A stretch of DNA of 36,324 bases from Candidatus Gastranaerophilales bacterium (GTDB lineage: Bacteria; Cyanobacteriota; Vampirovibrionia; Gastranaerophilales; Gastranaerophilaceae). The notes under the pieces were generated by a model, which worked only from the letters and a program-made list of their open reading frames with translations, was not told the origin of the DNA and searched no databases. This document shows, in pieces, positions 4,137 through 34,928 of this stretch (within the stretch, counting starts at the first letter, position 1; every line of letters starts with the position of its first letter). The DNA is taken from NCBI GenBank assembly GCA_944322945.1, contig CALUQN010000025.1, forward strand, positions 1-36,324, given 5' to 3'. A program made the translations under genes and the position numbers.

Positions 4137-7100
4137 TTAGTTCCAATTGTTTGACAGGTTTGACTTCATAGAATTAGCCCTGCGTAAGTTCAGATACAAG
4201 ATTTTGTTAGCCGTAGCCTTGCTCATATTCACGAACCTTACGCCCGCCATATTTTCCTGAAGCCGCATTACTTCAACCTGGACATCAATTTCCATATCCT
4301 CATACAACAAGGATACATCCATCTTGTCACCGACTTTAAGATTGAGTTCGTTGCCAATCAATGCGCCAGTCTTTGAAATATCATAAACCGGAACGGTAGA
4401 TTTGATATTTTGACCTGCTGTCGGGAATCTCATTGAAATACGTTTTGTTGCTTTATATGTGGCTTTATCAATATCTTTAAAGCCAGGAGTTGTTGTATAC
4501 TGCTGCAACTTATCATCTTTGTATGTCAGTCTGAAGAAGCTGTTTTCATTTCTGTAGAGGTTAGTTATTTCATACGGATTATATTGAACAGCCGGAGCTT
4601 TTGTTTCCAGGGTTATCAAATCTCCCATGTGAAGTCCGAAAGAACCTGTCTTTTGTGTATAGAGCTGCAATGTTGCATGGTCAAGATTTCTTCTGAAATC
4701 ATTATCCACAATTGTCAGCCATCTGTAGTCCTCACTTTGCGGTCTGTGAACACCACCTGAGCCGTCACGATTGCCGTTTCTGAATTCAGCATAATTGTTG
4801 ATAATTGCGTCACGTACGGTCAAATCCAAATCCTGGGTATCGACATAAGCATCATTTGCATACAATCTATTGATGTGCAGACCTCTGTTTGTATCTTGCT
4901 GTAAAGTATCATTTGAATTTAATGACAGAGTGACATCCTTAGCACGATAATCAGTTCCGGTTTGAAGAGTAAATTCATTCTGGAATACCTCAATAGTTGT
5001 CTTCAATTCCTGTTCAATGTAACTTCTTGTAGAACTGTCACCGTTATTTGCATCAGCTACAGCGTCTTTTGAAACACCAGTTATATCAAACGCCAGTTTT
5101 TCGCCGTCGCCGAAAGTATTAAATCCTGACGCATAAGAAGTCTTGCCGGTCAGCGGGTCAACATAAACCGTATCAGCTTTCGGGTCAAAGCCATCGTTAT
5201 GATGTTCTGTGTATACCGGTGATTCCATTGCGTCATAAGAATGAGCGTAGATATTATCCGCCATCAGGGTTACATCAGGTTTTTGGAAGATATTATCTCC
5301 AACTACTTCATATTCGCCTTTACCGTTGTTTGCACCGCGGACATAAGCGTTGTAAATTCTGAGTGTTGAATTTGCATTATCTCCGCCGAGAGCATCCAGA
5401 ACTTCAATAGCAACTGTCTGCGGGACAACTTCATTATTTTCACCGCCAAGTTTTATCTTGTCATGTGGATAGAGCAGATCGTTGAAATCTTCACTTCCGC
5501 CTGAAATTAAGCCCAGATTATATATCGTCAGATTTTTTGACTTATTTAAAATATGAAGATGATCATTTGATGTAATTTCCGCAATCTCAGCATCTGAACC
5601 GAGAGCAAAATCAATGGAGCCGCGTTTTGAAATCAAATGAGCGATATTAGTCTTGTCTCCAAAAGATGAACCGTCAAGGTAGATATCATTTTCAGCTTCA
5701 AAGCCTACTTTTGCATCACTATCTAAATCAGTTCTTTGTTTGTAGGTCAAGGCTTTACCATCTTCACCAATTTCGTTGCTTGAAATTACTGATATATTTT
5801 TACCTTCAAGGTTAGCCTGTGTGCTGTCTGATGAAGCATTTTTGATTGAGTAACCTCTGAAGTACGGTTCATTTTTTGGATCCGGATTTTCTTCGTCAGG
5901 CTGTTTCCAGTCAGCTGCTGTCAGGACAATATCACCGTCTGTTTTAATTTTATCAATATTCAAGTCTGACTTTTTAGCTCTCAGATTAACCAGACCGGAA
6001 TCTTCCACGCCAGCTTTTGCTGACGCCTCAATATCAACTTTTCCTTTTACATTAACATTGATTGATTTTGTATAATCTCTTGTATCAGCATCAATACTGT
6101 AAGCCGGTTTATCTGATACAGCCCGTTGACCGACACTTCCGCCGGTTAAGTTGATATCCAAATCTTTACCGGCTGCAACAAGAGTTTTGTCAACTCCGGC
6201 ATTCAGAATATCACCGTTTGTTTGATTAATTTTTACGTTGCCGTTAACTGCATTAATATTATTGTCAGTTGACGCATCAGCGATTGTTATATTGGCATCG
6301 CTGTTTGTAATATTAATATCCTGTTTATCGGTTTTTGTAATACCTGCGATAGTAATACCGCCAGCGGCTGTGTTTTTAATATTCAAATTGCCGTTGTTAT
6401 TTATAACAGAACCCGTTGAAGCGACTGTTATGCCGCCGTTTGTATTTGTAATATCAGTTTGTCCGAGGACATTCAGGACATCTCCTTGAACAAGTATTCC
6501 GTCGCCGCTGTTCAAGATTTCAAGTTTACCGTTATTATTTTTGAGCAGACCTGTGTCTGAAACAGTCAGCATGCCGGCGGTGTTTTCAACTTTTGAATCG
6601 CCTTTTTTATTATTCACGGTGCCTGCAATAGTTGTGCCGGCTGTGCCATTATTTGTAACGGTCATTTTACCGTTATTATTCAGAACCTTACCGCCTTTTT
6701 CAACAGTTATACCGCCGTTGGTATTTACAATATCAAGTGCACCGTTTTGGTTGTCAATCTTACCGGTTGAAGCGACCTGCACACCGTCAGCACCGTTGTT
6801 TTTAACGGTTGTATTACCCTGTTTGTTTTCAACTGTACCAGATACTTTCAAGCCTGCTTTCTCATTAGTAACTTCAGTTTTACCAATGTTGTTTGATACA
6901 GTACCGGTAATTTCAGTACCGCCTGAACCTTGAGAGGTTATTTTTGTGTTACCTTTACCGAAGTTTTTGAGCAAACCTGCAAGTGTCAGTTTGCCGCTTT
7001 CTTCTGTATTTGAAATTGTTACATTACCAGAGGCTGCCGGATTCTTTTCATTATTTTTTACTGCGGATGTGTCAGTCAATAGAATATCGCCTTTTGTATT

Positions 7101-10100
7101 TGTTATTTCAATATTGCCTTTTTCGTTTGCTATAGTGCCGCTGATTTCAGTTCCGTCTACGCCGTTATTTTTAACGGCAAGCTTTCCTTCATTTGCAATC
7201 TTACCGGCAATTTTAACTCCGGCATTACCGTCGTTTTCAATCGTTGAATTGCCGACAGCATCAATTGTTGCAACAATTTTACCGTCTTTATCATGTTTTT
7301 CATTTACAAGAACGCCGTTCTCCGATTTCAGGGTTAATTTTCCTGTTTCATCACCGGTTTGTTTATTTTTGCCGTGTGTGATTATACCGATGATATTGAG
7401 TTTACCGTTTGAAGTAACTTCGGTTGAAGCAAGTTTATGTCCCTGATTGACGGACGTTCCGGCAAATGTTCCTTTGTTATCAAATCCGCCGTTCATTCTG
7501 TCATTACCAAGGGTATTTATTACAAGTTCATTGTTTGTATCATTTTTGATAGTTACATTTGCGTAACCGTCAGTGTAGCGAACTTCACCTTTGCCGGAAA
7601 CATTACCTGTGAAGTTGACATTACCGCCTTCTTGTTTTGTATGGAATACAAGAAGTTTATTGTTTGCTTTGTCATAAATGACTTTAATATTATTGTCTTT
7701 ATTTAGATATGCAGTGTTAACCATATTCTTTTCTCCGGTATTCGGATCTACAATAAGGTTTTCATCTGTCAGCATATCATCTGTTATAGTAACATTTCTG
7801 TCACCGTAACCGGCTTGAACATATCCGTCGACTTTGATATTGTCAGCATTTACGGTAACATCTTTACCTGCAATAAATCTGTCGACTGTATTTATGTTCA
7901 AATCAGTGCCTTTTGCATCGTATGCAACATTGCCCTGTACTGCAACAACATCTTTCACAGCGGTGTTTATTGCTCCATTAAAGTTTATATCACCACTTTC
8001 GTTCCATACGTTTAGTTTAGCTCCGCTGAAATTAATCATTCCGTTGAAGGTTAAATCAGACGGGGTTGAATTTTTGAACTGATCTAACGGATTGTTATGG
8101 TCAAAGTAATTTTTGATATTAATACCAGGATCATAAGTCTGACCGTCGCCGCTCACAACAAGAACATTGTCATTTATCGGGATACCTGTATTTGCCAGAT
8201 AACTGTAATTGTTCTTTTCTATAATAAGTCCGACTTCATCAATATTATCAAAATTGATATTACCGAAGATTAAATCATATTTGCCGGAATAATTGTTTAC
8301 ATCAAATCCGGGTTCAAAGATTTTGAAATGACCGCTTCCTGTAATTTTATTCAGAGCAGTTTCGCCCTTGCTCCTGTCAATTGTTGTATCAGATTCAAGC
8401 CCGACAATCTCAATTTTAGATTTTGGCGCATTTATATCGTCAAATTTGATATAAGATTTGTCAACTGTAATATCTTCAAAAGTCAATCCGCTCAAGTATT
8501 CTTTTTGCGAAGTTAAGGCTTTTATATTTCCCTCAATGGTATTTTGTGTATCTTTAGTATTCTCTATTAATGTTTCAAGTGAATTTATCTGTGATTCATA
8601 ATTTGCAATAGAGGCATTTATATTATTTTTTGCAGCTTGTGCACTTGCAGAATCACCGATAAGTTTTTGGGTACCGTTATCATCATAATATGCGATTCCT
8701 GCATTTTCATCTGCGACTGTTATTTTGCCTTGTATTTCATTGTATGCGTTAAGAAGTGTTGTCTGCTGTTCCTCTGTCAAATTCAACGTGTCTGACGCAA
8801 TATACTTTTCAAAAGATAAAGCTTCACCATTTTCAGGTATTTCCTGATTCATAAACCCATTCCAGAATGTGTCAAAATCCTCAATAATACCGTCTGCGGC
8901 AGTCTTAACATTATCTTTTAGAGCATTCTGGACAGATTCCATTGAAATAGTCTCATAATCACCTGTATTCAAAGCCTCAAGCATTTGTTTAAGTTCAGCA
9001 ATCGAAGCTTTATATTCAGCAATTTTTTCATTGCTATATTCATTATCCTCTTCTATTGCAGAAAGTCTTTCTTGAAGTTCTGCAAGTTCTTCTGCTATAG
9101 ATTCAATAGCTTTCTGATTATCTTTTTCTTGTTCTTCTGCTGTGATTACACCGCCTTCGACGACTTCATATTTATTTTCAAAGCCTTCATCTTCTACAAT
9201 ATTGCCGTCTTTATCAATAAGCATATTGTATTTTGAGCCGGCGCCGGCACTGATTTCACCGTCCAGTTTTAGATTATTATCTATTTTTGTAGCAATATTC
9301 TGGCTCTTACCTGATGTAGTAATCGGAATACCAAACAACAAATAACTTGTTTTTTCGTATTCTACATTTGATGAAAGCTTTGTTCTGCCGTTGCCGTAGC
9401 GGATTGTAACATCCTTGTCTGAGGTTATTGCAGCATCTTTATTCACTGTCAAATTATTTGTAGTATTAAATTCAAGTTTTCCGTCAACATCACCGGTTGC
9501 AACACCTGCATCAACATCTAAAAAGGCATTTTGGGTTAAATTGTTCGTTGAATTTTGCATAAAGTTAATCTGAACTACATCATTGCCTAAAAGCTGTCCG
9601 TTGTTATTAACGTTATTATTTACATTCAATGTAAGGTAAGCATTAGCACCCGGGTCAACACCCCCAAACTGATCGGCGTCAATGCTTACGTCTGATACGA
9701 GCGTGTTATTAGAATCTAATGCGATATCCAGATCTCTTGCAAGAAGTGATGAGCCGCTTCCGATATCCAGATTATTGTTATTTGTTACAGTTAACCTTGA
9801 GGTTGCAACGTTTTTGGCTATAAACCCGCCGGCAGCAGAACCTATGTACTGCTTCAATGTACTGTCTGAAGTAACGTCAACATTCATCTTGTTAGCAGCT
9901 CTGAATTTAGAATCGTTAAGTTGAATCTTACTTGTTTGGCTAACATCGTTAGTAATATTTGTACTGTCTGATACTGAAAAACCGGCAAGTTTAACTTCAT
10001 ACTTGATATCTTTATCATCAATTGTACCAAGTTTTGCATTGGTTTTCATAGACATGTCGTAAGCTTCTATATCAGTGCCGTTTTGTGAAACAATATCAGC

Positions 10101-13100
10101 AGTTGATGTTATGTTATTTTTAACATTACCACCATACACAAGAACCGCTCCGGAAGCTTGAAGATTTCTCTTCATCGCAACACGGTTTTCACTATTTACA
10201 TCAAAATTAACATTTCCTGATGATTTGATTTTGGCTCCGTCAATGTTGATTTTGTTAGTTGTGTTTAGTGTATTCGATGTATCTGATTTTGAGATTGCAA
10301 CCAAGGTAACAGCTTTATCGCTTAATACGGTTTCTGTTTTGTTAACAGCATTTGATTTTACATTCATACTGTTTTCAAAATTTTCGTTTGTTGCATCTGC
10401 TGTGACATTGATAACTGAATCACCGTTAGCTGCGGTTGTAAGCTGATAAGTACCTACACTGACCAAACCGCCGACTTTAGATTCCGCTGTATTGAATGAA
10501 TCTCGTGAAACCTCAGATGTTACTGTCATATTATCCATAGCAAGCTTGCCGCCGATATTAATAGTGGTATCTGTATCTATCAATGCTTCACTCGTATTTA
10601 TTTCAACACCAACCAGGCTTATTTCTGCATTAACCATCTGTGTATTGACGTTAGCATTATCTTGTAATGCAACTTTAACAGCATTTGTTATTTCATTATT
10701 GCCGCCGATTGTTATTGTATTTGAACCACCTACTTTGGATTGCAACTTCAATGTTGAAATATTAATTGCGCCAAGACTTGCAGATGATGAACCTGATGTA
10801 GCAGTACGATTAACTTTTGAAATCACATTCAGATTATTTGATTTAAGACTTCCTGCATTAACAGTTGCATTTGTTTGAGCGTTAACTTCTGCATTTAGTC
10901 TAGTTACGCCGATACCTGCCAAACCTGCTTGTGCTTTTTTAGCAAGAACTTCAGCCCTGATTTCGCCGGCTTCATCTGTATTTGTCTTAACACCTGCGGC
11001 GACTTTAGTATTGACTGTATTTTCTATTGTTAAACCGGAATTATTAATACCTGAGTTAAATTGTGCATTAACAATAGCCCCCTGTGAGGTGACTGTTGCT
11101 GAGGCAAGTGACAGACCACCCATATTTACGGTTGTTTTGGCACTCACACCGCCTGTTGATGCAATTACGTTCATATTATTGGAATTGATTGTTCCGGTTG
11201 CATTTACAATTGCATTTGTAATAGCACTTGATTCAGCTTTATTAACAACAACCTGTCCTGAAATAGCAGAAGCTCTAAGAGATGCAAGTTCTGAACTTAA
11301 AGCGCTTGTATTGTCAGCTTTTACATCTAGGTTTCCGGTTGCATCAATATCTACTGCCCCTCTAATTGCAGCTTCTACCGTATTTTTAGATTCTGCAAGC
11401 GCAACGGTCGCATCAATGCTTACACCGGAAACATTTGCACCAACAGAACTTACATTTGTTGTATCTTTTGAAATTGCATTCACCGCAATATTTTGACCGC
11501 TTATTGTACCATTATTTATTTCTGATTTTGTAGTAGAGGTATTTGTAAAGTATGCAACGTTTCCGCCTACTGTAACACTACCAAGAGATGCAGCATAAGC
11601 ATTTGTGTCTGCTATAACCTCATTATTTGCAGTCACTGAAATATTATTACCCGATACATTACCGCCTAAACTTGCGGATGTATTGTATTTCATATTAGTT
11701 ACAAGCACATTTGCAGAAAATGCTCCTGCAGGCCCGATGGCAGCTGTTGCATTGTGTTTATCTAAATTGAGTGTATTAGACGCATCAACAGTTACGTCAC
11801 CCGTTGACTGAATATTGGCATTCACATTAGCTTGAACACCGCCTTTTGATGCATCTGATACAGTCACATCTGCACGATTAAGTGCAACATCGGTAATATT
11901 ACCATTATCGCTGGTTGTTAAATACTCATTTGTGTTGGCATCATCAAATTTGCCGCCGATAGATGTCACAGAAACAGCGCCTGCAACACCATACAAACCG
12001 CCTGCGGCTGATGCTGTAAGGATATTAATATCCATATCTGAAACGGCATCAACATCTACGGAAGATGCTATGATTACACCTGTTGTAGATGCAATTTCAG
12101 CTCTCACTGCATTATTAATTATATTAACGTTTGCAGCACCGGCTCCGCCACCGCCGACTCCTACAGCGACGATACCGACATTCATATCCAGATTAATTTT
12201 ATCCTGCGCATTTACAGTGAGTATTCCTGTTGTAATATCTTTAACACTGTTATCAACATAAGCACGGACTTCTGATTCTATCACGTTAACAATGACACCA
12301 AGACCAACTGCCAATCCGCCGATTGTTGCTGACAAATTATTGCCGCTAAATTCATTATTACTTGTTGAATTTACAGTCAATGCACCCGAATTAATTTCTG
12401 AATCTTTAATTTGTGCAACACTTGTATTCTTAGCCGAATTGGCAATAGCAGAACCGTTTACTGCTGTTGCAGAACCTGCACCGGCAGCCAGCACATCAAA
12501 AGTTTTAAATTCATTTGAAGCTTCTACTTTTGTTTCTCCACTGGATTTAATTATTGAGTTTTCAATAGAAGCTGTATTAGTTGTCGTATTTTCGTTTGCA
12601 ATTACAAGCGCATTACCCGCAACACCTCCGGAAGCTGCAACTCCGGCAGCAAGAGTTGCAGCCTCTTTATCATTCTCGGCTTTTACAGTTACTGTTTCGG
12701 CGTTTTGGATATCAGAATCTTTAATTTTTGCGGAAATTGTATTCTGCATATAATTATTATTCACTGTTGCATTCGCAGCAGCAGTACCGGAGCCTGCGGC
12801 ACCCAGCATAATTCCGCCTAAATATCCGCCGTCTTTTGCAGTTACTTCGACTGAGCCGTTTTTAACTGTTGTATCCAGTATTGATGCTTCTGTTGTTCCT
12901 AAAATAGTATTAACAAGCGCATTTCCTGTTACAGAGGTGACACCGGAACCTGCAAGGTTAGCAAGCGCGTCATAAGTAACCGCGACGGTTTCTGCTGAAA
13001 CATTCAATTTATTTGTATTTTCAATTTCTACCTGTTCAACAACCGCTGCAACATCGTTTGTCACGGTATTTGCTACAGCTACACCTCCGACAGAAGCAGT

Positions 13101-16100
13101 TCCGGAGCCGGTTACAGCAAGAATATTTACAATCGGAGTATATTTACCAATACTAATTCCTCCGCTAAAATCAGAATTATTGCCAACGAGAACCTCATAG
13201 AAATTGTCATTGTATTTCCATTTGTTGAAATCATTTTTTGCGATTACATTGATATCACTTGAGCCGTTAGAAAGGTTAGAGTTTACAACATAAGCTTTCA
13301 CCGCTGCATCAACAACATTAATAATGCCTGCACCGGCAACACCAGCACCGCCAGCTGCACCAACCATCATCATGGTTGCACCGAATGAAGATTTTGAATC
13401 CGCATTAACATTAATATCTTTTCCTGCTGTGATTGAAGTTTTAGCACCGTCAATTGTGCCGACTTTTGCTTCTGTAGTGTTAGAAAAAGCGTTTACATAA
13501 GCAATTGCGCCGACAGAAGCCATACCGGCACCGCTTACTGCAACATTTACACTCTCAACATCAGTTTTTTCAGCGGCATCGACATTCACAGCACCTGCGG
13601 ATTTTATGGTAACACCGTCTTCTACGGTTGCAAGTGTTTTATTTACAACAGTATTAACATTAGCTGAACCGTTAACCGCAACATTGCCGGCACCGCCGCC
13701 AACTACCATCAGAGTTCTGACAGTTTCATTATTTTGTGCTTTTACGTTAACATCTCCGGATGTGGTTTTGATATTAGCACCTTTTGCAATTTTTGCTTCG
13801 GTTGTGCCGGTTACCACATTTACAAAAGCAGAGCCGCCGACAGCCGCTGTACCCGCGCCCGTAATACTACCGACAATCGCGTTGATTACAACACTATCCG
13901 TTGCCTGAACATCTACTGAACCGGCATTTATTACAGCATTACCAACTGAAGCCAGTACATTGTTATTAACGACTTTTGTAATTATAGAACCGCTTACGCC
14001 TGCCGTACCGCCGCCTGCCAGATCAAATGTCATCTGCCAGTTTTTGAGGGATTCATAATCCTCAAGGGCTATACCGCCATTCACAACCTTAGTTATAATA
14101 TCATCAAGATTGATAGATACAATGTCTCTACCGCCGGAATAGTTGTTTGCCGCCGCATTGACATTCACTTTACCGCTTGAAGTTATATTTGCACCGTCTG
14201 CAACTGATGCTGAAACATTTTTATTCAAAACATCTACAATAATAGAACCGCCGACACCTGCTTTTGCTCCGCCTGTGATTACCCCGCCACGGCTCTTTAA
14301 GTCTGTAGTATCAGATGCAATAACATCAACTCCGGTTGAATTTGTCACAGTGCCGCCAACAGATGCCATTGTGTTGTTAACAATAACATTTGCACCAATA
14401 TTTGCGGCAGCCGCCAGAGTACCTGTTGATACGGAAACAGCTGCAGGAATAATGTCGATATTTTCATAAGATTGAGCAGCAGCACTTACTTTGCCGTCTG
14501 TTTCAATATTAGAATTTACGTTTGAAGTTGTTTCATTTGTATAAACATTTGTAATAATATTACCGCCTACTGCATTGCCGTTACCCAGTGCCAATCCTGC
14601 AACTGCCGTGACACCCTCGACTGTATTATTATAATCAGATGCTGCGGCAACATTTCCTGTTGATTTAATTGAACCGCCTGTAATATATGATTGAATATTA
14701 CTATTCAAAACATTTACAATAGCATTTGCCAGAACTTGGGTAGTTTGCCCCGTAGTAAGCCCGAAATTCACTGCAAGAAATCTTAAAAGTTCGTCAGAGT
14801 CTGCCGTAACAGATACAGAGGTTGAATTCTGTATTTTAGAATTTTGGATACCCGCAATAATTTCGTTATTAATAACATTCACAACAGTACCGATACCTAC
14901 ACCTGCACCGTTAGCAGTAGAAATAGAGGCTGAACCGGCAACATTTGCGGCATTAATATTTGAGTAAGCAAGAGTATCCACAGCACCGGAAGAATTTATT
15001 ACAGCATTATTAATCGCTGCTGAAACAGCATTCCCAATGACGTTAACCCCTATAGCACCTACAAATGAGAATGATGAAGAACCGCCTGTAATTACACTGC
15101 CTGCAATTGAAAATGCAATTATATCATCAGTTACACCGCCTTTATCGTTAGCCTTAACATTTACATTTTTGACACCTTGAAGATTACCACCGGTAATTTC
15201 AGAAGTTGTTGATTTATCATATATATCAATATTACCTGCAATACCGGCACCAACATTGGTACTGCTGCTTCCTCCGCCTGCGTAAGCAACACCGCCGGCA
15301 CCTTTATAAGATTTTGAATAATTGTTTGCAACTACATTTACATCGGTATTATTCCCTGTCAGAGTAACATTTTTCATAGAAGATGTTACCGTATTGTCTA
15401 TTGTGTTTACGTTAAATGAACCGCCCACAGCAGTCTTTGTATTGCCGCTTTGACCGGATGCAGCACCTACTCCGAGTGCAACTGCAATATTTTCATTATT
15501 TTCATCAGCCTTAATATTCAACGCGCCGTTTTGATTTGCAAACGTAACATTTGAGCCGTTCATTTTAGCTATTGTTGAACCGCCTTTGGAATTAACATTA
15601 ACAGCGGCACCTGCACCGACATTACCTGATTTTGCGACACCTGTTGCTATATCAAGACCTTTTGTTTCCTGTGTTGCTTCTACATTCAAAGAATTTCCGA
15701 CAGTAATAGTCGCATTGCCTACAGAAGCTTCTACATTGGTATCATTAGAATTTACTGTTACAACACCTGCTGCTGCGGCAGAAAAATTATCGGCTGCGGT
15801 CTGACCGTTTGCAGTTTGAGTTAAATTACCTGTAGTTCCGGCAAGCGCCTGACCTTGAGAAGTTGTAGAATTATTGTCAGTCGTTCCGTCATCAGGTGTT
15901 TTATTTGTATCATTCAATGATGATTGAACATTTTCGTCTTGAAGAGAATCTGTAACCGAACTTCCTGAAGCATCAGCGACAGCTTTATCTGAAGAAGATG
16001 CCCCGCCTTTGATTTTATCTACAATCGGCTGTAATTTATCCATCCAGCCGCCAAAGTTCCCGAAGGTCTGATTGCCGGAAGATGTTCCGCCGTTATTTAC

Positions 16101-19100
16101 AGCTTGCTGTGTATCTTTTTCAACACTTACGCCGCCGGCAAAAGCACCTGCCAGACCGACATTCAAAGATTGATATTTTGAATCTGCTTTAATATCAGCA
16201 CTTTCAGCTGCAGTAACAGTAGCCCCGTTACCGATTTGAGCCTGTACATTTTTATCAATATCGTTCACCATAACAGTGGCACCGACTGCGGCTCCTGAAG
16301 ATGATGTCTGACCGCTGCCCTGTGAGGTTGAACCTTTTTGTTTTGATACCGCACCGCCGATATTTAAAACGGAAGTTTTATCAGTTATATTTAATTCATT
16401 ACCAAAAGCAACGGTATTATTAACAAGATCTGTTTTATCCGCAACAGGTCTAAATTTTCCTTCACCGGCTTTTACTTCAACTTTTTTAGCGGAAACTTTT
16501 GCATTTTCACCGATTGAAGAAGTTGTGTTTCCACTTATACCGTTAACAAGAACAGAACCGGACAAAGCAAATGTACCGGAGGTTGCGCCTGTTGATATTA
16601 CATTCAGATAATTTGCTTCATTAGCCGAGCTAATCACTATATTTCCGTTTTGAACATTAACGGCTGCGCCTTTACCAATAGATGCAACCGCATTATTAGT
16701 AAAATCATTAACAAGCACGGAACCGCCTAAACCTACTTTGTCACCGCTTGCCGCACCTTTAAATATAGCAGTCAGTTCGCCCACACCGTTAAAGTTCACC
16801 GCAGAATTTACGGCGTTAACAAGAACATCGCCCCCGTCAGCTGTAACTTTTGCATTTTCACCGATTTTTGCTGTCGTATTATTTGCTATTGTGTTGTACA
16901 CAACAGAACCGGAAACACCGACGGTCTCACCTTTACCGGATGCGGCAACCTGATTGTTAAAAAGGTTGTAATCAAATGTATTGTTATCACCGGACGCCAG
17001 TTCAAATTCAACATCGGACAAATCAAGCCCTGAATACTCATCCCCGTTAGATTCAAACATGCTGAAATCCCAGCTCCAATTGCCCGAAGACGAAGGCCCG
17101 AGTTTTAGGCTGACAACATCCTGACCGAGAATATTAAGCTGAATATCAGCAAGTGAAAGCGGAAGTTCCGTTGTTGAATTAACTTTTACGGAATTTGCAT
17201 TAACATTACCTGTGATACTTGCTTTTGTTGTATTATCCTGACTGTTCACAAGAACCGCGGCACCCGGAGCAAACCTTGCGCCGTCCGTAGATTCTGAGGT
17301 TACTTTATTGGTTGTGTAATCAATAGTATTAGCTTCAACTGCAACATCACCGCCGGCTTTAAATTCAGCACTGCCTATTGATGCCGTGGTATTAACTACA
17401 CTTTTATTGATATCTACAACACCCGTCAATTCAACTTTTGGAGTCGGAGATGATGTTGTCGGATTTTTGGCATCTGCTTTGTCAGAAGAAAATGCCGACA
17501 TAATACCCTGAATTTTACTTAAAATACCTTTTTCCTGTTCATCGTGCTCCTTATCATCTTTATTTTCCCCTTGATCACCGGGTTTATATTCACTTCCTGT
17601 AGCGGAAATTTTTACATCGCTCACATGCAATGATTGCGCTGTAACATTTGCATCACCTTTCAATTCAGTATTTGCATTCACAACAGCAGATGTATTTACT
17701 CTGTCATTTTTCAAAACAAGAGATACACCGGCAGTACTTCCTGCGGATTGTCCCTGTGAAGCCTGTTGATATTTTACAGTATTGTCTGACTTTATAGAAT
17801 TATTTGTTACATTGACCGCTGCCACATTCAAATTATCTGCCTTGATAGTTGACTTATTGTCAACCTGAACATTAGTATCAGCAGTTGACGTATGATTTAT
17901 AACCATTAATTCATAAGCATTTGCTTTTTGACCTTTGTTTTGAATTAAAGTCTGGTTATTGAGTCTGAGTGAAGATTTGTTCTCTGACATTGCAAGAGCT
18001 TTAAAATCTCCGTTTGTATTAATATTTGAATTTTCAACATTTATATTAGATTTTGTAGAGTTACCCAGCGCGTAAATCAACGCTTTACCGGTCGGAATTG
18101 TTAATGAAGACACAGAAGTCTCAGCGTTTGCATTGGTACCTAAAATAATATCCCCGTTTGCGGCAAGGTCTGCATTTTCAATATTGATTTCAGCCTCAGC
18201 TCTTGCGCCGACAAAATCATCATAAGGGGTATCCATATTAAAAAATCCGTCAAGATTTGTTGCGGCGTCCATTGTCGCTGCCTTTATATTACTAAATTGC
18301 GAGTCTACTTTATCAGCAGCTTCCGCAGTGATATCAATTTGACCGCCTGCGATTGTAGCGTTTTTAATATTTACAGACGCCTTAACCGGCTCATTTTTAT
18401 CAACTTTGTTAAGAATTGAACCTGTTGTTTCACGAGAAGCCTGCGCACGGATTACAACTTTGCCGTTTTGTAAATCCAATCCTGTCGGATTTTGGATATT
18501 ATTTGATACAAGGCTGTTAAAAACTTCATTGGCTCTGTCAGCTGTCAGAATTTTTTCCTGATACTGGTTACCAATACCGGCAATAATTCCTGCAGTATTT
18601 TTAGCGGTTGAATCCTCTCCTACCGTAATATTTTTACCGTAAATTTCAACACCGTCGCGTGCAATGATTTTACCGTTAATTGTTATATTACCCTGTGAAT
18701 CGGTTTTCAAATTAGACAAATCTTCTGTCGGGTTTGCCTTCATGCCGGAAGTAAAAGAATTATAAGTATCCTGTGACGGAGTAATCAAAGACAATGCACC
18801 CACGTTCAACACGCCTGAAGCTCCGATTACAATACCGCTTGGAGAAACAAAGATTGCATGACCGTTATTAAATGCGCCGGAATTATTAAGAATGTTCAAA
18901 ATACCGTTTATATTAACCTGATTGTTTACGAGTGCAACAAATTTATCTCTGCCAATAGAGTTTATAAGGTTTGCAATATCACCTTCAGTTAAATTAAACT
19001 GATTAAAATGACCGAAGTCAGTCGAACCATGGCTAAAGTTTGGATTGATATCCCAGATATTACCATTTTGAGTTATATCAGGCGCCATGCCGGCTGATTT

Positions 19101-19226
19101 ATCAGGTGTAATCACACTCTCTGCCAGCAGCGGCAAAACTAAACTCTGCTGGAACACAAAACTTACGCATAAAATGGCAACAAAGACTCGGCGCACAATA
19201 TCCGTAAACAATCTTTTTCTCTTCAT
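4137..19226 (-). CDS. Giant two-partner-secretion exoprotein (TpsA/filamentous haemagglutinin-like) with C-terminal PilZ-like domain, 5029 aa
   Basis: A probable giant surface adhesin exported by Sec and then the TpsB pore encoded divergently at 19431. The extended basic signal peptide (residues 1-35, ending LLA-ES) is typical of TPS cargo. The TPS/haemagglutination-activity domain follows, with VNNQVNINGIL (100-110) and FVSPSGIVIGASG (126-138) at the place of the NPNG-type motif. About residues 200-3300 are beta-helix repeats rich in Asn, Gly, Ala, Val and Thr with a 54-55 residue period in places. Acidic or Ser/Thr linkers interrupt them near residues 555-600 and 1055-1130. Coiled-coil inserts lie near 3363-3419 and 3529-3579, a 23-25 residue repeat array at about 3995-4330, a non-repeat region to 4925, then a PilZ-like domain. 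The frame is intact, so the gene is probably functional. It resembles LktA/FhaB-type adhesins. An AAAGGA ribosome binding site precedes the ATG. Confidence 0.93.
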   Translation of the reverse strand: MKRKRLFTDIVRRVFVAILCVSFVFQQSLVLPLLAESVITPDKSAGMAPDITQNGNIWDINPNFSHGSTDFGHFNQFNLTEGDIANLINSIGRDKFVALVNNQVNINGILNILNNSGAFNNGHAIFVSPSGIVIGASGVLNVGALSLITPSQDTYNSFTSGMKANPTEDLSNLKTDSQGNITINGKIIARDGVEIYGKNITVGEDSTAKNTAGIIAGIGNQYQEKILTADRANEVFNSLVSNNIQNPTGLDLQNGKVVIRAQASRETTGSILNKVDKNEPVKASVNIKNATIAGGQIDITAEAADKVDSQFSNIKAATMDAATNLDGFFNMDTPYDDFVGARAEAEINIENADLAANGDIILGTNANAETSVSSLTIPTGKALIYALGNSTKSNINVENSNINTNGDFKALAMSENKSSLRLNNQTLIQNKGQKANAYELMVINHTSTADTNVQVDNKSTIKADNLNVAAVNVTNNSIKSDNTVKYQQASQGQSAGSTAGVSLVLKNDRVNTSAVVNANTELKGDANVTAQSLHVSDVKISATGSEYKPGDQGENKDDKEHDEQEKGILSKIQGIMSAFSSDKADAKNPTTSSPTPKVELTGVVDINKSVVNTTASIGSAEFKAGGDVAVEANTIDYTTNKVTSESTDGARFAPGAAVLVNSQDNTTKASITGNVNANSVKVNSTTELPLSLADIQLNILGQDVVSLKLGPSSSGNWSWDFSMFESNGDEYSGLDLSDVEFELASGDNNTFDYNLFNNQVAASGKGETVGVSGSVVYNTIANNTTAKIGENAKVTADGGDVLVNAVNSAVNFNGVGELTAIFKGAASGDKVGLGGSVLVNDFTNNAVASIGKGAAVNVQNGNIVISSANEANYLNVISTGATSGTFALSGSVLVNGISGNTTSSIGENAKVSAKKVEVKAGEGKFRPVADKTDLVNNTVAFGNELNITDKTSVLNIGGAVSKQKGSTSQGSGQTSSSGAAVGATVMVNDIDKNVQAQIGNGATVTAAESADIKADSKYQSLNVGLAGAFAGGVSVEKDTQQAVNNGGTSSGNQTFGNFGGWMDKLQPIVDKIKGGASSSDKAVADASGSSVTDSLQDENVQSSLNDTNKTPDDGTTDNNSTTSQGQALAGTTGNLTQTANGQTAADNFSAAAAGVVTVNSNDTNVEASVGNATITVGNSLNVEATQETKGLDIATGVAKSGNVGAGAAVNVNSKGGSTIAKMNGSNVTFANQNGALNIKADENNENIAVALGVGAASGQSGNTKTAVGGSFNVNTIDNTVTSSMKNVTLTGNNTDVNVVANNYSKSYKGAGGVAYAGGGSSSTNVGAGIAGNIDIYDKSTTSEITGGNLQGVKNVNVKANDKGGVTDDIIAFSIAGSVITGGSSSFSFVGAIGVNVIGNAVSAAINNAVINSSGAVDTLAYSNINAANVAGSASISTANGAGVGIGTVVNVINNEIIAGIQNSKIQNSTSVSVTADSDELLRFLAVNFGLTTGQTTQVLANAIVNVLNSNIQSYITGGSIKSTGNVAAASDYNNTVEGVTAVAGLALGNGNAVGGNIITNVYTNETTSNVNSNIETDGKVSAAAQSYENIDIIPAAVSVSTGTLAAAANIGANVIVNNTMASVGGTVTNSTGVDVIASDTTDLKSRGGVITGGAKAGVGGSIIVDVLNKNVSASVADGANITSSGKVNVNAAANNYSGGRDIVSINLDDIITKVVNGGIALEDYESLKNWQMTFDLAGGGTAGVSGSIITKVVNNNVLASVGNAVINAGSVDVQATDSVVINAIVGSITGAGTAAVGGSAFVNVVTGTTEAKIAKGANIKTTSGDVNVKAQNNETVRTLMVVGGGAGNVAVNGSANVNTVVNKTLATVEDGVTIKSAGAVNVDAAEKTDVESVNVAVSGAGMASVGAIAYVNAFSNTTEAKVGTIDGAKTSITAGKDINVNADSKSSFGATMMMVGAAGGAGVAGAGIINVVDAAVKAYVVNSNLSNGSSDINVIAKNDFNKWKYNDNFYEVLVGNNSDFSGGISIGKYTPIVNILAVTGSGTASVGGVAVANTVTNDVAAVVEQVEIENTNKLNVSAETVAVTYDALANLAGSGVTSVTGNALVNTILGTTEASILDTTVKNGSVEVTAKDGGYLGGIMLGAAGSGTAAANATVNNNYMQNTISAKIKDSDIQNAETVTVKAENDKEAATLAAGVAASGGVAGNALVIANENTTTNTASIENSIIKSSGETKVEASNEFKTFDVLAAGAGSATAVNGSAIANSAKNTSVAQIKDSEINSGALTVNSTSNNEFSGNNLSATIGGLAVGLGVIVNVIESEVRAYVDNSVKDITTGILTVNAQDKINLDMNVGIVAVGVGGGGAGAANVNIINNAVRAEIASTTGVIIASSVDVDAVSDMDINILTASAAGGLYGVAGAVSVTSIGGKFDDANTNEYLTTSDNGNITDVALNRADVTVSDASKGGVQANVNANIQSTGDVTVDASNTLNLDKHNATAAIGPAGAFSANVLVTNMKYNTSASLGGNVSGNNISVTANNEVIADTNAYAASLGSVTVGGNVAYFTNTSTTKSEINNGTISGQNIAVNAISKDTTNVSSVGANVSGVSIDATVALAESKNTVEAAIRGAVDIDATGNLDVKADNTSALSSELASLRASAISGQVVVNKAESSAITNAIVNATGTINSNNMNVIASTGGVSAKTTVNMGGLSLASATVTSQGAIVNAQFNSGINNSGLTIENTVNTKVAAGVKTNTDEAGEIRAEVLAKKAQAGLAGIGVTRLNAEVNAQTNATVNAGSLKSNNLNVISKVNRTATSGSSSASLGAINISTLKLQSKVGGSNTITIGGNNEITNAVKVALQDNANVNTQMVNAEISLVGVEINTSEALIDTDTTINIGGKLAMDNMTVTSEVSRDSFNTAESKVGGLVSVGTYQLTTAANGDSVINVTADATNENFENSMNVKSNAVNKTETVLSDKAVTLVAISKSDTSNTLNTTNKINIDGAKIKSSGNVNFDVNSENRVAMKRNLQASGAVLVYGGNVKNNITSTADIVSQNGTDIEAYDMSMKTNAKLGTIDDKDIKYEVKLAGFSVSDSTNITNDVSQTSKIQLNDSKFRAANKMNVDVTSDSTLKQYIGSAAGGFIAKNVATSRLTVTNNNNLDIGSGSSLLARDLDIALDSNNTLVSDVSIDADQFGGVDPGANAYLTLNVNNNVNNNGQLLGNDVVQINFMQNSTNNLTQNAFLDVDAGVATGDVDGKLEFNTTNNLTVNKDAAITSDKDVTIRYGNGRTKLSSNVEYEKTSYLLFGIPITTSGKSQNIATKIDNNLKLDGEISAGAGSKYNMLIDKDGNIVEDEGFENKYEVVEGGVITAEEQEKDNQKAIESIAEELAELQERLSAIEEDNEYSNEKIAEYKASIAELKQMLEALNTGDYETISMESVQNALKDNVKTAADGIIEDFDTFWNGFMNQEIPENGEALSFEKYIASDTLNLTEEQQTTLLNAYNEIQGKITVADENAGIAYYDDNGTQKLIGDSASAQAAKNNINASIANYESQINSLETLIENTKDTQNTIEGNIKALTSQKEYLSGLTFEDITVDKSYIKFDDINAPKSKIEIVGLESDTTIDRSKGETALNKITGSGHFKIFEPGFDVNNYSGKYDLIFGNINFDNIDEVGLIIEKNNYSYLANTGIPINDNVLVVSGDGQTYDPGINIKNYFDHNNPLDQFKNSTPSDLTFNGMINFSGAKLNVWNESGDINFNGAINTAVKDVVAVQGNVAYDAKGTDLNINTVDRFIAGKDVTVNADNIKVDGYVQAGYGDRNVTITDDMLTDENLIVDPNTGEKNMVNTAYLNKDNNIKVIYDKANNKLLVFHTKQEGGNVNFTGNVSGKGEVRYTDGYANVTIKNDTNNELVINTLGNDRMNGGFDNKGTFAGTSVNQGHKLASTEVTSNGKLNIIGIITHGKNKQTGDETGKLTLKSENGVLVNEKHDKDGKIVATIDAVGNSTIENDGNAGVKIAGKIANEGKLAVKNNGVDGTEISGTIANEKGNIEITNTKGDILLTDTSAVKNNEKNPAASGNVTISNTEESGKLTLAGLLKNFGKGNTKITSQGSGGTEITGTVSNNIGKTEVTNEKAGLKVSGTVENKQGNTTVKNNGADGVQVASTGKIDNQNGALDIVNTNGGITVEKGGKVLNNNGKMTVTNNGTAGTTIAGTVNNKKGDSKVENTAGMLTVSDTGLLKNNNGKLEILNSGDGILVQGDVLNVLGQTDITNTNGGITVASTGSVINNNGNLNIKNTAAGGITIAGITKTDKQDINITNSDANITIADASTDNNINAVNGNVKINQTNGDILNAGVDKTLVAAGKDLDINLTGGSVGQRAVSDKPAYSIDADTRDYTKSINVNVKGKVDIEASAKAGVEDSGLVNLRAKKSDLNIDKIKTDGDIVLTAADWKQPDEENPDPKNEPYFRGYSIKNASSDSTQANLEGKNISVISSNEIGEDGKALTYKQRTDLDSDAKVGFEAENDIYLDGSSFGDKTNIAHLISKRGSIDFALGSDAEIAEITSNDHLHILNKSKNLTIYNLGLISGGSEDFNDLLYPHDKIKLGGENNEVVPQTVAIEVLDALGGDNANSTLRIYNAYVRGANNGKGEYEVVGDNIFQKPDVTLMADNIYAHSYDAMESPVYTEHHNDGFDPKADTVYVDPLTGKTSYASGFNTFGDGEKLAFDITGVSKDAVADANNGDSSTRSYIEQELKTTIEVFQNEFTLQTGTDYRAKDVTLSLNSNDTLQQDTNRGLHINRLYANDAYVDTQDLDLTVRDAIINNYAEFRNGNRDGSGGVHRPQSEDYRWLTIVDNDFRRNLDHATLQLYTQKTGSFGLHMGDLITLETKAPAVQYNPYEITNLYRNENSFFRLTYKDDKLQQYTTTPGFKDIDKATYKATKRISMRFPTAGQNIKSTVPVYDISKTGALIGNELNLKVGDKMDVSLLYEDMEIDVQVEVMRLQENMAGVRFVNMSKATANKILYLNLRRANSMKSNLSNNWN
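4176..4445 (-). other. PilZ-like domain at the C-terminus of the exoprotein
   Basis: Residues about 4928-5017 of the giant protein. R4929-I-S-M-R4933 fits RxxxR and D4949-I-S-K-T-G4954 fits [D/N]xSxxG, the two c-di-GMP contact motifs of PilZ. The downstream pattern also fits: alternating beta strands (GALIGNELNL, KMDVSLLY, IDVQVEVMRL), then AGVRFVNMS and a closing amphipathic helix (KATANKILYLNLRR). The call rests on motif reading, not a profile search. PilZ domains normally sit in the cytoplasm, so the location on a secreted protein is odd. Confidence 0.75.
6230..7240 (-). repeat. Array of 23-25-residue beta-solenoid repeats in the exoprotein
   Basis: The encoded stretch (about residues 3995-4330) repeats a pattern of the form 'G-x-x-x-V-x-N-x-x-G-x-x-T-I-A-G-T-V-N-N' every 23-25 residues, for example GKMTVTNNG followed by TIAGTVNNKKG. 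This corresponds to about 70-75 bp per unit. The period is shorter and more regular than the repeats in the N-terminal half, so this is a separate solenoid section. Confidence 0.7.
8490..9138 (-). other. Coiled-coil inserts within the exoprotein
   Basis: Two Glu/Lys/Leu-rich helical stretches interrupt the beta-rich protein. The first is about residues 3363-3419 (SIAEELAELQERLSAIEED and IAEYKASIAELKQMLEAL). The second is about residues 3529-3579 (YESQINSLETLIENT and onward). Between them lies a non-repetitive, helix-prone segment with WNGFMNQ. An antiparallel helical hairpin projecting from the solenoid is a plausible reading; composition differs sharply from the flanking repeats. Confidence 0.7.
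12880..16960 (-). repeat. Long beta-helix repeat region (about 55-residue units) of the exoprotein
   Basis: Units share the skeleton 'G-x-A-x-V-G-G-S-x-x-V-N-x-x-x-N-x-T-x-A-x-I', then a Gly-Asp-Val-x-V-x-A turn. Two consecutive units beginning AVGGSAFVNVV and AVNGSANVNTV measure 55 and 54 residues (about 165 bp). Sequence between units is diverged, so these are old protein repeats, not fresh DNA duplications. Limits are approximate. Confidence 0.65.
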
Positions 19227-32690: not shown

Positions 32691-33110
32691 ATGCAGTTAG
32701 TAGGTCTTAATCCGCAAGTAGCTTTTCAGGCGAAACAAGCAGAAAACAGAACAGACGCAAATGCAGCTGTCAATACTCAAACTGCACCAGTACCTAATGA
32801 TTCGTTTGAAAAACCGGAGCGAAAAAAAACTTTTAAAGAAGGTCTCGGCAGTGTTGCCAAATTTTTTGTAAATATTAAGGAAATGGCTGTCGGTATTGTT
32901 AAAGGGCTTTTGTACGGCGGAGCAGCAGCAGGTGCTATTGTTTTAGGAGACAGAGCAATCAACTTAAAACATACTGTAAAAGGCGGTATGGCAGCTTCAA
33001 TTGTGGGCGGGGGTATTGCTGCTTTCCATATTATCAAAGCACGTTTAAAATCCAACCAAAGAACCGCAAATGTTGATCACCAGTTAAAAATCGGTCACCG
33101 CGATAAATAA
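32691..33110 (+). CDS. Small two-helix membrane protein, 139 aa, paralogue-like to the 120-aa gene after radA
   Basis: Unknown family. The N-terminal ~45 residues are polar, begin MQLVGLNPQVAFQAK and contain NDSFEKPERKK, sharing DSFEK plus basic residues with the 93-aa protein at 949. Two glycine-rich hydrophobic segments follow (about residues 66-86 and 96-115), with IVKGLLYGG, INLKH and KGGMA between and around them. The 120-aa protein at 34551-34913 has the same order of motifs (IFKGYLG, INREKH, FKGTMA). The C-terminal tail is basic. A strong AAGGAG ribosome binding site lies 6 nt upstream. It sits 61 bp before radA, which has its own promoter. Confidence 0.75.
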   Translation: MQLVGLNPQVAFQAKQAENRTDANAAVNTQTAPVPNDSFEKPERKKTFKEGLGSVAKFFVNIKEMAVGIVKGLLYGGAAAGAIVLGDRAINLKHTVKGGMAASIVGGGIAAFHIIKARLKSNQRTANVDHQLKIGHRDK

Positions 33111-33156
33111 TCATATAATCATGTTTTCTTCATCAAATTTTGTTTTTTAATTTGCA

Positions 33157-33165
33157 TGGTATAAT
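33157..33165 (+). promoter_or_regulatory. Extended -10 of radA, leaderless spacing
   Basis: TGG-TATAAT, a perfect extended -10, ends exactly 6 nt (TTACTT) before the radA ATG. No Shine-Dalgarno precedes the start codon. Confidence 0.65.
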
Positions 33166-33171
33166 TTACTT

Positions 33172-34545
33172 ATGGCAAAAGTAAAAACAAAATGGATATG
33201 TCAGAATTGCGGGTATGAAACGGCAGGATATCTGGGGAGATGTCCTGAATGCGGTCAGTGGGGAACTTTTACGGAAGAAGTTCAAGCTGACATCAAAACT
33301 CCTGCAATGACACCACAAGGAATACTAAACAACGCAAAACCGGAACTTTTGTCAGACATACATATAGGTGAAGAAGTCCGTGTCAGCACTAATATAAAAG
33401 AATTTGACAGGATACTCGGCGGCGGACTGGTGCAAGGTTCTCTTGTGCTAATTGCAGGAGACCCGGGTATAGGCAAATCTACAATCCTTTTGCAGACAAG
33501 CGGTCAGCTTTGTCAAAACGGTAAAAAGGTGCTTTACGTTTCTGCTGAAGAAAGCGCAAGCCAGCTTAAACTACGGGCGGAAAGACTTTCTATAAATTCT
33601 GACGCACTCTATATCTACCCTCAGACTAATCTGGAAAATATCAGAACAGAAATTGATAATATTTCGCCAGATGTGGTTGTTATAGACAGTATTCAGGCAA
33701 TATATTCGCAAACAATTACAAGCTCAGCAGGAAGCGTTTCACAGATTAGAGAATGCTGCAACATTCTGATGCAAATTGCTAAAAATCAAAATATAACAAT
33801 CATTGTAATAGGTCATGTAACAAAAGACGGCAATATTGCCGGACCCAAAGTGCTTGAACACATGGTTGATACCGTAATCTACTTTGAGGGTGACAAATAC
33901 AAATCCTATAGAATGCTTCGCTCAATGAAAAACCGTTTCGGCAACACTTCAGAGGTCGGAATATTTGAAATGCATTCCAATGGCTTAAAAGAAGTCACAA
34001 ACCCTAATGAGTTATTTTTAAATGAGCGCTCGCAAGTTGCGGCTCCGGGGAGCGCAATTATCGTCACGAACGAAGGCTCTAGACCGCTGCTTGTTGAAAT
34101 ACAGGCTCTTGTCGGCTCTACACCCTACCCGACACCAAGACGTGTTACAAACGGTGTTGATTTGAGCAGACTTCTGCAAATTCTTGCAGTACTGGAAAAA
34201 CGCGTCGGACTAAACTTATCGAAACAAGATGTCTATGTGAATGTTATGGGCGGAATAGATGTGGATGAACCAAGCGCAGATTTAGGAATTGCACTGGCTG
34301 TCGCGACTTGCGCAAGGGATGTAGTTGTCGACCCGCAGACTGTTATCATCGGTGAAATAGGTCTCTCCGGCGAAATCCACCCCGTCAACGGAATCGAAAA
34401 ACGTCTGAAAGAAGCAGTTACTTCAGGATTTAAAAAAGCAATTATCCCTTATGCCAATAAAATTTCGTTTAACGGAATTGAAATTGTTCCTGTAAAACGT
34501 CTCATTGACGCCATTGCAGCTTGTATTTCAGCGCCTGCTAAATAA
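33172..34545 (+). CDS. radA: DNA repair/recombination protein RadA (Sms)
   Basis: A 457-aa DnaB-like helicase that extends branch migration in homologous recombination. In order: the N-terminal zinc finger C10-x2-C13 and C24-x2-C27; a RecA-type ATPase with Walker A G96-D-P-G-I-G-K-S-T104; the RadA-specific K253-N-R-F-G257 motif; and a C-terminal Lon-protease-like domain (about residues 290-455, with GGIDVDEPSADLGIA) lacking protease function. Length is typical. The start is fixed by the extended -10 six bases upstream, with no ribosome binding site. The two flanking genes encode similar small membrane proteins with no known link to RadA. It is convergent with the 120-aa gene, with only 5 bp between stop codons. 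Confidence 0.97.
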   Translation: MAKVKTKWICQNCGYETAGYLGRCPECGQWGTFTEEVQADIKTPAMTPQGILNNAKPELLSDIHIGEEVRVSTNIKEFDRILGGGLVQGSLVLIAGDPGIGKSTILLQTSGQLCQNGKKVLYVSAEESASQLKLRAERLSINSDALYIYPQTNLENIRTEIDNISPDVVVIDSIQAIYSQTITSSAGSVSQIRECCNILMQIAKNQNITIIVIGHVTKDGNIAGPKVLEHMVDTVIYFEGDKYKSYRMLRSMKNRFGNTSEVGIFEMHSNGLKEVTNPNELFLNERSQVAAPGSAIIVTNEGSRPLLVEIQALVGSTPYPTPRRVTNGVDLSRLLQILAVLEKRVGLNLSKQDVYVNVMGGIDVDEPSADLGIALAVATCARDVVVDPQTVIIGEIGLSGEIHPVNGIEKRLKEAVTSGFKKAIIPYANKISFNGIEIVPVKRLIDAIAACISAPAK

Positions 34546-34550
34546 ATAAT

Positions 34551-34913
34551 CTACTTTTGTTTCTGTACACCTTTTGCATCTTTCACGATAAAAGGTCTGA
34601 CAAATGCCCAAGTCCCGTATAACGACGTTAAAAGCCCGCCAGCCATAGTGCCTTTAAAAACTGCCGGATGCTTTTCACGGTTAATTAATCCGCCTAATGT
34701 CACAATCGTTGTACCTGTCATTATTCCTAAATATCCCTTAAAAATCGTTCTCGGGACAACTATTGTATCAGTCATATCAGACGCGTTTTTAACCTTTGAT
34801 TGAATATTATCAAGAAAAGACTTACGCTCTGCCTGCGTGTTTGAGGTTTCTTGCTTGCTTATTTGCATTTGATTTCTAAAATATATACCATGGGATATCT
34901 TTGTTATTTGCAT
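34551..34913 (-). CDS. Small two-helix membrane protein, 120 aa
   Basis: Unknown family. The N-terminus is polar (MQITKISHGIYFRNQMQISK), followed by a charged linker, then two hydrophobic segments (about residues 57-77 and 88-110) separated by LINREKHPAVFKG. The pattern K-G-x-L, I-N-x-x-x-H, K-G-x-M-A matches the 139-aa protein on the other side of radA. Start: the frame is open back to 35159, but that would overlap the divergent pilin-like gene. ATG 34913 lies exactly 6 nt after a perfect extended -10, the same leaderless arrangement as radA and smpB, and gives an N-terminus (MQI..) like that of the paralogue (MQL..). Confidence 0.75.
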   Translation of the reverse strand: MQITKISHGIYFRNQMQISKQETSNTQAERKSFLDNIQSKVKNASDMTDTIVVPRTIFKGYLGIMTGTTIVTLGGLINREKHPAVFKGTMAGGLLTSLYGTWAFVRPFIVKDAKGVQKQK

Positions 34914-34919
34914 AGGAAA

Positions 34920-34928
34920 ATTATAACA
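34920..34928 (-). promoter_or_regulatory. Extended -10 of the 120-aa gene, leaderless spacing
   Basis: On the minus strand TGT-TATAAT is followed by 6 nt (TTTCCT) and the ATG at 34913. It decides the start of this gene. Confidence 0.65.

What the first reader, a model, noticed from the sequence alone, without database searches (positions are those of the whole stretch)
32691..34913. Two paralogous small membrane proteins bracket radA
The 139-aa and 120-aa proteins share the order K-G-x-L, hydrophobic Gly-rich segment, I-N-x-x-x-H, K-G-x-M-A, second hydrophobic segment, and MQ-I/L starts. One is upstream of radA on the plus strand, the other immediately downstream on the minus strand. The 93-aa protein at 949 shares DSFEK with the first. 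This points to an expanded, undescribed lineage-specific family with a polar N-terminus and Gly-rich membrane helices.
Basis: partly seen in the sequence, partly recalled or inferred. Interest (0 to 1): 0.5.

Follow-up and report, generated by a model that had tools for sequence, protein, structure and literature searches.

The report
Shared N-terminal tag on unrelated proteins
Two small proteins next to a DNA-repair gene in a gut relative of cyanobacteria are not shown to be siblings, but both begin with the same short tag, which also turns up on other unrelated proteins of this bacterium and may send them out through a non-flagellar export machine.

Summary
Both proteins exist, but paralogy is not shown. 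P1 (32691-33110 +) and P2 (34551-34913 -) belong to two undescribed Gastranaerophilales families, found in 23 and 49 of 146 genomes. BLASTP and profile comparison fail (hhalign 2.7% and 4.7%), though the first Gly-rich helix scored above 149 of 150 block-shuffled profiles. P1 tends to follow mutS and P2 to face radA, so the bracket looks like two linkages meeting. DSFEK is not conserved in P3's family.

What they share is an N-terminal tag, roughly M-[KRQ]-[IV]...[SNAP]-F-x-[GA]. A profile from these two families gives 17 strong hits (P1 included) among 748 proteins from 41% of this genome, against 1.3 expected. Hits cluster, are mostly non-homologous, and the excess recurs in other Gastranaerophilales DNA.

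The genome has no flagellin or P-ring match, yet keeps a conserved second type III export core. I infer, without direct evidence, that the tag is its export signal (0.4). That the tag is real I put at 0.85.

The parts
32691..33110 (+). P1, 139 aa, family 1
   Evidence: 23 of 146 genomes; no Pfam or NCBIfam match over cut-off
32691..32735 (+). N-terminal tag of P1 (residues 1-15, Phe12)
   Evidence: Score 13.2 with the tag profile, of which its family is a training set
32889..33041 (+). Two Gly-rich hydrophobic segments of P1 (residues 67-85 and 99-117) with the loop between
   Evidence: Hydropathy windows 1.74 and 1.39
34551..34913 (-). P2, 120 aa, family 2
   Evidence: 49 of 146 genomes; 140 relatives in genome contigs, 80 kept; start 34913 inferred from relatives and leaderless promoter, a script chose 34868
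34872..34913 (-). N-terminal tag of P2 (residues 1-14, Phe12)
   Evidence: Phe12 in 90% or more of 37 aligned relatives; score 11.3, training family
34584..34736 (-). Two hydrophobic segments of P2 (residues 60-78 and 92-110) with the loop between
   Evidence: Hydropathy 1.13 and 1.05; helices 55-75 and 83-105 in a model of mean pLDDT 59.9
34920..34925 (-). TATAAT 12 nt before the P2 start, leaderless-type promoter element
   Evidence: Sequence; same spacing is the genome-wide peak for genes without a ribosome-binding site

Best explanation
P1 and P2 are members of two small-protein families of Gastranaerophilales, not shown to be related, that carry the same N-terminal short linear signal: Met, usually a basic or polar residue, Ile/Val, a spacer rich in Pro, Asn, Gln, Ser and Thr, then [SNAP]-Phe-x-[Gly/Ala]. 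The signal sits on other, mostly non-homologous proteins, most of them without a known domain. Most likely mechanism: it is an export signal read by a second, non-flagellar type III export apparatus that these bacteria keep (FlhA-, FlhB-, FliP-, FliI-, FliE-, FliF- and FliH-like plus rod-like proteins). P1 and P2 would leave the cytoplasm by it and insert their two hydrophobic segments into a membrane outside the cytoplasm. Shown: the families, the tag, its excess over chance, its clustering, the apparatus genes and their separateness from the flagellar set. Inferred: that the tag is an export signal, that this apparatus reads it, and the fate of P1 and P2.
For: Tag kept while the linker varies (78 of 79 P2 relatives with [FY]x[GASQTN]; Phe12 in 90% or more of 37). 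17 of 748 proteins at score 10 or more against 1.3 in shuffles; 10 of 920 against 0.9 in loci of other genomes. Tagged genes cluster, 14 pairs against 3.45, 0 of 2000 permutations. Of 35 tagged proteins picked by eye 5 have a Pfam domain over cut-off, of 10 random untagged ones 7. Tag regions are enriched in P, N, Q, S, T (their lack of acidic residues is partly built into the filter). Export core present: FHIPEP in 94 of 99 relatives, FliE, FliF, FliH, FlhB, FliP, FliI, rod-like, with no flagellin or FlgI match in this genome; second FlhA 76-92% identical across five Gastranaerophilales genera. In the three sampled genomes without FHIPEP the tag count at score 10 is 1, 0 and 1.
Against: No direct evidence of export. 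Three tagged proteins have a signal-peptide- or lipobox-like stretch after the tag. No tagged gene was recognised in the export cluster itself (by eye). FHIPEP is in nearly all relatives, so co-occurrence hardly tests the link; G111 and G124 have FHIPEP but no excess at score 10 (0 against 0.1, 0 against 0.3), and G115 without FHIPEP has an unexplained excess at score 7 (7 against 1.6). With the loose pattern the excess over shuffles is clear only in G000 (1 of 1000) and not in G074 (78 of 1000) or G098 (112 of 1000). Half of the training members of family 2 score below 10 (15 of 30; family 1: 18 of 23). The Phe lies at about residue 12 in P1 and P2, closer than the 19 residues that flagellar substrates need.
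Confidence: 0.4

Rival explanations
1. The tag is a real sorting or docking peptide but not for type III export: for example a handle for an envelope-assembly factor, an extension placed before Sec signals and late membrane helices, a cleaved leader, or a binding peptide for a protease or scaffold.
For: Three tagged proteins have signal-peptide- or lipobox-like stretches after the tag, and 10 of 30 have a hydrophobic segment. The core F-x-[GA] is a sharper motif than type III signals are usually said to have (recalled).
Against: The share with a hydrophobic segment is like that of untagged proteins, 263 of 890, so the tag does not mark membrane proteins as such; several tagged proteins look like soluble enzymes.
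Confidence: 0.38
2. Chance plus N-terminal composition bias: AT-rich gene starts favour Lys, Asn and Ile, and a Phe followed by Gly or Ala turns up now and then.
For: With a loose pattern 25.2 of 42 hits are expected from shuffled N-termini; gene starts were called by a simple script.
Against: The profile trained on two families finds 17 against 1.3 in composition-preserving shuffles, maximum 6 of 100, repeats in other loci, and its hits cluster. Pro, Gln and Ser are enriched too.
Confidence: 0.12
3. P1 and P2 are distant paralogs.
For: Same layout: tag, polar linker, KG before a Gly-rich segment, second segment, charged tail. The first-helix resemblance scored above 149 of 150 block-shuffled profiles.
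Against: BLASTP E 0.24; hhalign 2.7% and 4.7% over 22-23 columns of one helix; different conserved cores and tails. P3 lacks the tag (score -1.7) and the second segment.
Confidence: 0.1

Closest known systems
Bipartite export signal of early flagellar rod/hook subunits (PMC8983047; abstract and passages read)
   Different: There the second element is the gate recognition motif (FLTLL in FlgD) and needs at least 19 residues of separation; here it is F-x-[GA], at about residue 12 in P1 and P2 and up to about residue 43 in others. Recognition is untested.
Non-flagellar type III secretion systems (PMC3459982; passages read)
   Same: Export core without a filament.
   Different: The second apparatus keeps FliE and rod-like genes, which that study's definition excludes, and its secretin is not shown.
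Partial flagellar gene sets in Gastranaerophilales (PMC4040986, PMC3787301; passages read)
   Same: Probably the same genes: those papers report most genomes with subsets, one genome lacking filament, cap, hook-filament junction, L and P rings, and two flhA genes in another.
   Different: They infer loss of flagella. Here the set is seen as a separate, conserved system, because G035 and G098 have it beside a flagellar set.
Chlamydial Inc-type membrane proteins (recalled, not tested)
   Same: N-terminal export region and a two-segment hydrophobic hairpin.
   Different: No sequence comparison was made, no target membrane is known, and family 2 is strongly conserved in sequence.

Membership tests
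One paralogous family P1+P2(+P3) | Significant sequence or profile similarity | tested here: not met
   BLASTP E 0.24; hhalign 2.7% and 4.7%; 1 of 150 block shuffles reaches the score
[quoted passage not shown]
   FlhA, FlhB, FliP, FliI, FliF types found; Q, R and M/N types not searched; one secretin per genome, not in the cluster and possibly of another system
Non-flagellar T3SS (definition of PMC3459982) | No flgB, flgC, fliE | tested here: not met
   FliE 65.1 bits over its cut-off; two Flg_bb_rod matches over cut-off in G000
Bacterial flagellum | Flagellin and P-ring | tested here: not met
   No flagellin match in G000; no FlgI match in G000, G001, G009, G052, G074; genome 98.6% complete by the tool's estimate
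Early flagellar substrate signal | Small non-polar residues near the N-terminus | tested here: met
   Ile/Val at residue 3 is a main feature of the profile; partly favoured by my choice of starts in the training families
Early flagellar substrate signal | Docking motif at least 19 residues downstream | tested here: not met
   Phe at residue 12 in P1 and P2
Type III exported protein | Gate-dependent export | not testable with these tools
   Needs an experiment
Inc-type membrane protein | Two close hydrophobic segments | tested here: inconclusive
   Two segments of moderate hydropathy; helix hairpin in a model of mean pLDDT 59.9

The most novel reading that the evidence does not exclude
Gastranaerophilales, gut relatives of cyanobacteria, run a vertically inherited, flagellum-derived but non-flagellar type III export machine, earlier taken for flagellar leftovers. 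Its cargo, some dozens of orphan proteins that include kinase-like, acetyltransferase-like and two-segment membrane proteins such as P1 and P2, is marked by a conserved short N-terminal tag, an explicit sequence code for export to a host or neighbour.
Probability: 0.33. Interest if true: 0.87.

Novelty: new variant of a known kind. Interest (0 to 1): 0.6.

Why it matters
If the tag is a signal of any kind, it gives a sequence handle on many orphan proteins of a widespread, mostly uncultured gut lineage whose dealings with host and neighbours are unknown. If the second apparatus reads it, 'partial flagella' in these genomes are a working exporter, and its cargo could be listed from a visible motif.

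Tried and rejected
Paralogy of P1 and P2: BLASTP, profile comparison and block shuffles; not shown. DSFEK link to P3: rejected. A conserved radA-bracketing unit: rejected. Known families: Pfam and NCBIfam gave nothing over cut-off for P1, P2, P3, the PDB nothing for the P2 profile (P1 was not searched there). Blind motif discovery by EM found only charged and hydrophobic periodicity, somewhat stronger at N-termini than inside. Loose patterns mix true tags with chance, so I rely on the profile; its length and acidity penalties were set by hand, and the start choice in the training families favoured K/Q or M[KRQNS][IV]. P2 itself was called with the later start and so is not among the 17 hits. 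The AlphaFold model of P2 is used only for the helix layout; no fold search was run. Literature: searches listed no paper that by title or abstract describes such a tag or a type III apparatus distinct from the flagellum in this group; subscription papers and preprints are not held. One search repeated part with a higher limit and added nothing. One search stopped on a script error and was rerun, changed.

Full report
What was claimed.

The observation. Both ORFs are real and conserved. P1 is 88-93% identical in the three same-genus genomes and weaker elsewhere, 23 of 146 genomes in all. P2 is in 49 of 146 (of the same genus in G001 and G003, not matched in G002). A scan of one genome per species gave 140 relatives of P2, 80 kept. 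Neither these nor P3 reach a Pfam or NCBIfam cut-off, and the P2 profile matches no PDB chain up to E 1.

Not paralogs as far as can be shown. BLASTP between P1 and P2 gives E 0.24 on an irrelevant stretch. hhalign gives 2.7% and, with 23 and 87 members and without N-termini, 4.7% over 22 columns of the first helix. That score was equalled by 1 of 150 block-shuffled profiles, so the KG...G...G resemblance is more than random; it may be convergence or a very old kinship. The conserved parts differ: family 2 has a near-invariant core around PRTIFKGYLG and YGTWAFVRPF, family 1 a C-terminal stretch ending in V-DH. P3's family (15 of 59 genomes) has one hydrophobic segment in P3 itself, another N-terminus and no conserved DSFEK (8 loci read).

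The radA bracket. mutS was found near P1 relatives in 13 of 23 genomes and radA near P2 relatives in 15 of 30 loci (loci reach at most 1.5 kb to each side and some contigs end earlier, so these are lower bounds). P1 beside radA was seen only here; in the three same-genus genomes the contig ends just after P1.

What they share. Family 1 begins MQLVGLNPQVAFQA, MEIGFNPVVSFRA, MQVSFNPAVSFRQ, MAINFNPAISFRA; family 2 MKIQNINTTVFKA, MKIQSIANYRFTG, MRIQKISTAEFKG, MKINPITPNFKQ. In family 2 the Phe is kept in 90% or more of 37 aligned sequences; 78 of 79 have [FY]x[GASQTN] in the region and 58 of 79 the stricter core. Some members (MLERIGNYPTTSY) have lost the Phe. With the later profile 18 of 23 family 1 and 15 of 30 family 2 members score 10 or more. 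Caveats: starts in the families were chosen by a script that favoured the tag's second residues, and P2's own start is uncertain.

Is it wider? I took sample stretches of the window's genome (876 kb with window and contig C21, 748 called proteins of 60 aa or more; starts approximate). A first pattern gave 42 hits among 354 proteins with a fitting start, against 70 of 1567 internal windows (p 7e-7). Shuffling each N-terminus in place gave 25.2 expected (1 of 1000 reached 42); for G074 78 of 1000 and for G098 112 of 1000 shuffles reached the observed number, and the five other genomes show no excess. A profile trained on families 1 and 2 was then applied. At score 10: G000 17 against 1.3 expected (maximum 6 in 100 shuffles; P1, a training member, is one of the 17), G074 3 against 0.1, G098 2 against 0.3, G111 0 against 0.1, G124 0 against 0.3; and in three genomes without an FHIPEP match G110 1 against 0.3, G125 0 against 0.2, G115 1 against 0.2. 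At score 7: G000 28 against 9.9, G074 8 against 1.8, G098 7 against 2.6, G110 4 against 1.6, G125 3 against 1.6, G115 7 against 1.6. The G115 excess is unexplained; its hits do not look to me like the Gastranaerophilales tags. In the loci, most family 2 members removed, 10 of 920 proteins in 7 groups score 10 or more against 0.9; one group is a family 2 remnant. Among the 42 loose G000 hits with a body long enough, one homologous pair was found. Hits at score 7 lie near each other: 14 pairs within four genes against 3.45, 0 of 2000 permutations; at least two of these pairs may be duplicates.

What the tagged proteins are. Of 35 picked by eye (30 G000, 5 G074; not all score high) 5 have a Pfam domain over cut-off: two CheR, one GNAT, one AAA, one alpha/beta hydrolase; of 10 random untagged G000 proteins 7 do. 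Two read as protein-kinase-like by a Gly loop, a D-x4-N pair and a following ID[DF] (my reading). For one there is no Pfam match up to E 0.1 and a single PDB match up to E 0.1, the secreted effector kinase SteC, E 0.0016, 31 residues; for the other nothing of weight. The largest, 1409 aa, has a weak alpha-amylase-like stretch. Of 30 proteins at score 8 or more (G000 and G074) 10 have a hydrophobic segment, of 890 others 263. Three have a signal-peptide- or lipobox-like stretch after the tag, which speaks against a single type III route.

A candidate machine. FHIPEP (FlhA/SctV) is in 94 of 99 relatives; this genome has one full-length copy, of the lower-scoring class, and a partial one. Beside it lie FliE-, YscJ/FliF- and FliH-like genes. 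FlhB with NPTH is elsewhere, as are FliP, FliI/YscN over its cut-off and two rod-like genes. Flagellin gave no match here or in the three same-genus genomes, but in 35 of 59 relatives (G052 and G074 were not in that set). FlgI gave no match in G000, G001, G009, G052, G074; it is in G035 and G098, which have two FliP and two FliI over cut-off where the other five have one. In an 11-sequence tree the second FlhA (76-92% identical among five Gastranaerophilales, 64-66% to G111) stands apart from the flagellar FlhA of G035 and G098, which goes with E. coli FlhA. Its nearest solved relatives are FlhA proteins, then a low calcium response protein. In G009 and G052 proteins starting MGMAASQAR lie a few genes before this cluster. 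Each of seven genomes has one secretin, which may belong elsewhere. So it is neither a standard injectisome nor, by its conservation, a dying flagellum. Earlier papers describe such gene sets as flagellum loss: PMC4040986 (three of nine genomes with complete sets) and PMC3787301 (one genome without filament, cap, junction, L and P rings; two flhA genes listed for another), passages read.

How it may work. [quoted passage not shown] The tag has a similar two-part plan with another motif and, in P1 and P2, a shorter spacer. I favour export by the second apparatus at about 0.4, another sorting role at 0.38, bias and chance at 0.12, distant paralogy at 0.1. Nothing here shows export; the route, the receptor and the fate of P1 and P2 are inference.

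Noticed in passing
G000 sample stretches; e.g. window 34920-34925 before P2: Many genes without a ribosome-binding site have a TATAAT-like hexamer starting exactly 12 nt before the start codon (38 of 150 at -12; 87 hexamers at -20 to -8 against 37 at -44 to -21; reversed for genes with a good site), pointing to common leaderless transcripts.
   Followed up: partly
L080:8039-9514 -: A 491-aa protein matching only the C-terminal, cytoplasmic part of FlhA (FHIPEP positions 322-654); similar partial matches of about 500 aa were listed in several other genomes.
   Followed up: no
L058:16499-18256 +, L059:12206-13723 -, L092:9536-11143 +, L265:2585-3559 +, L267:3276-4868 +: Proteins sharing the start MG[LM]AASQAR; three in the G000 sample and one each before the second export cluster of G009 and G052. 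No Pfam match for the three G000 ones; candidate extracellular parts of the apparatus.
   Followed up: partly
L090:1901-2896 +, L060:16882-17889 -: Two tagged proteins with kinase-like motifs not recognised by Pfam.
   Followed up: partly
L067:17206-17490 +, L072:8492-9646 +, L090:9262-9894 +: Tag followed by a signal-peptide- or lipobox-like stretch; possibly two alternative starts.
   Followed up: no
L058:157-291 +, L059:11125-11259 +, L061:16659-16802 +: The same or a similar short ORF (MGNKHDVYCHPESV / MGSKHYVCCHPESV) at three places, probably a dispersed non-coding repeat.
   Followed up: no
window 4137-19226 -; L071:3609-14374 -: Very large proteins (5029, 859 and 2666 aa) with signal-peptide-like starts; L071's two share the ITGVTGNNG start of the mature part, adhesin-like.
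   Followed up: no
window 949-1230 +: P3's family has a conserved LNVGV-[LI]-x-[PA]-P-N ... VLYS-type core and no tag; its start is uncertain.
   Followed up: partly
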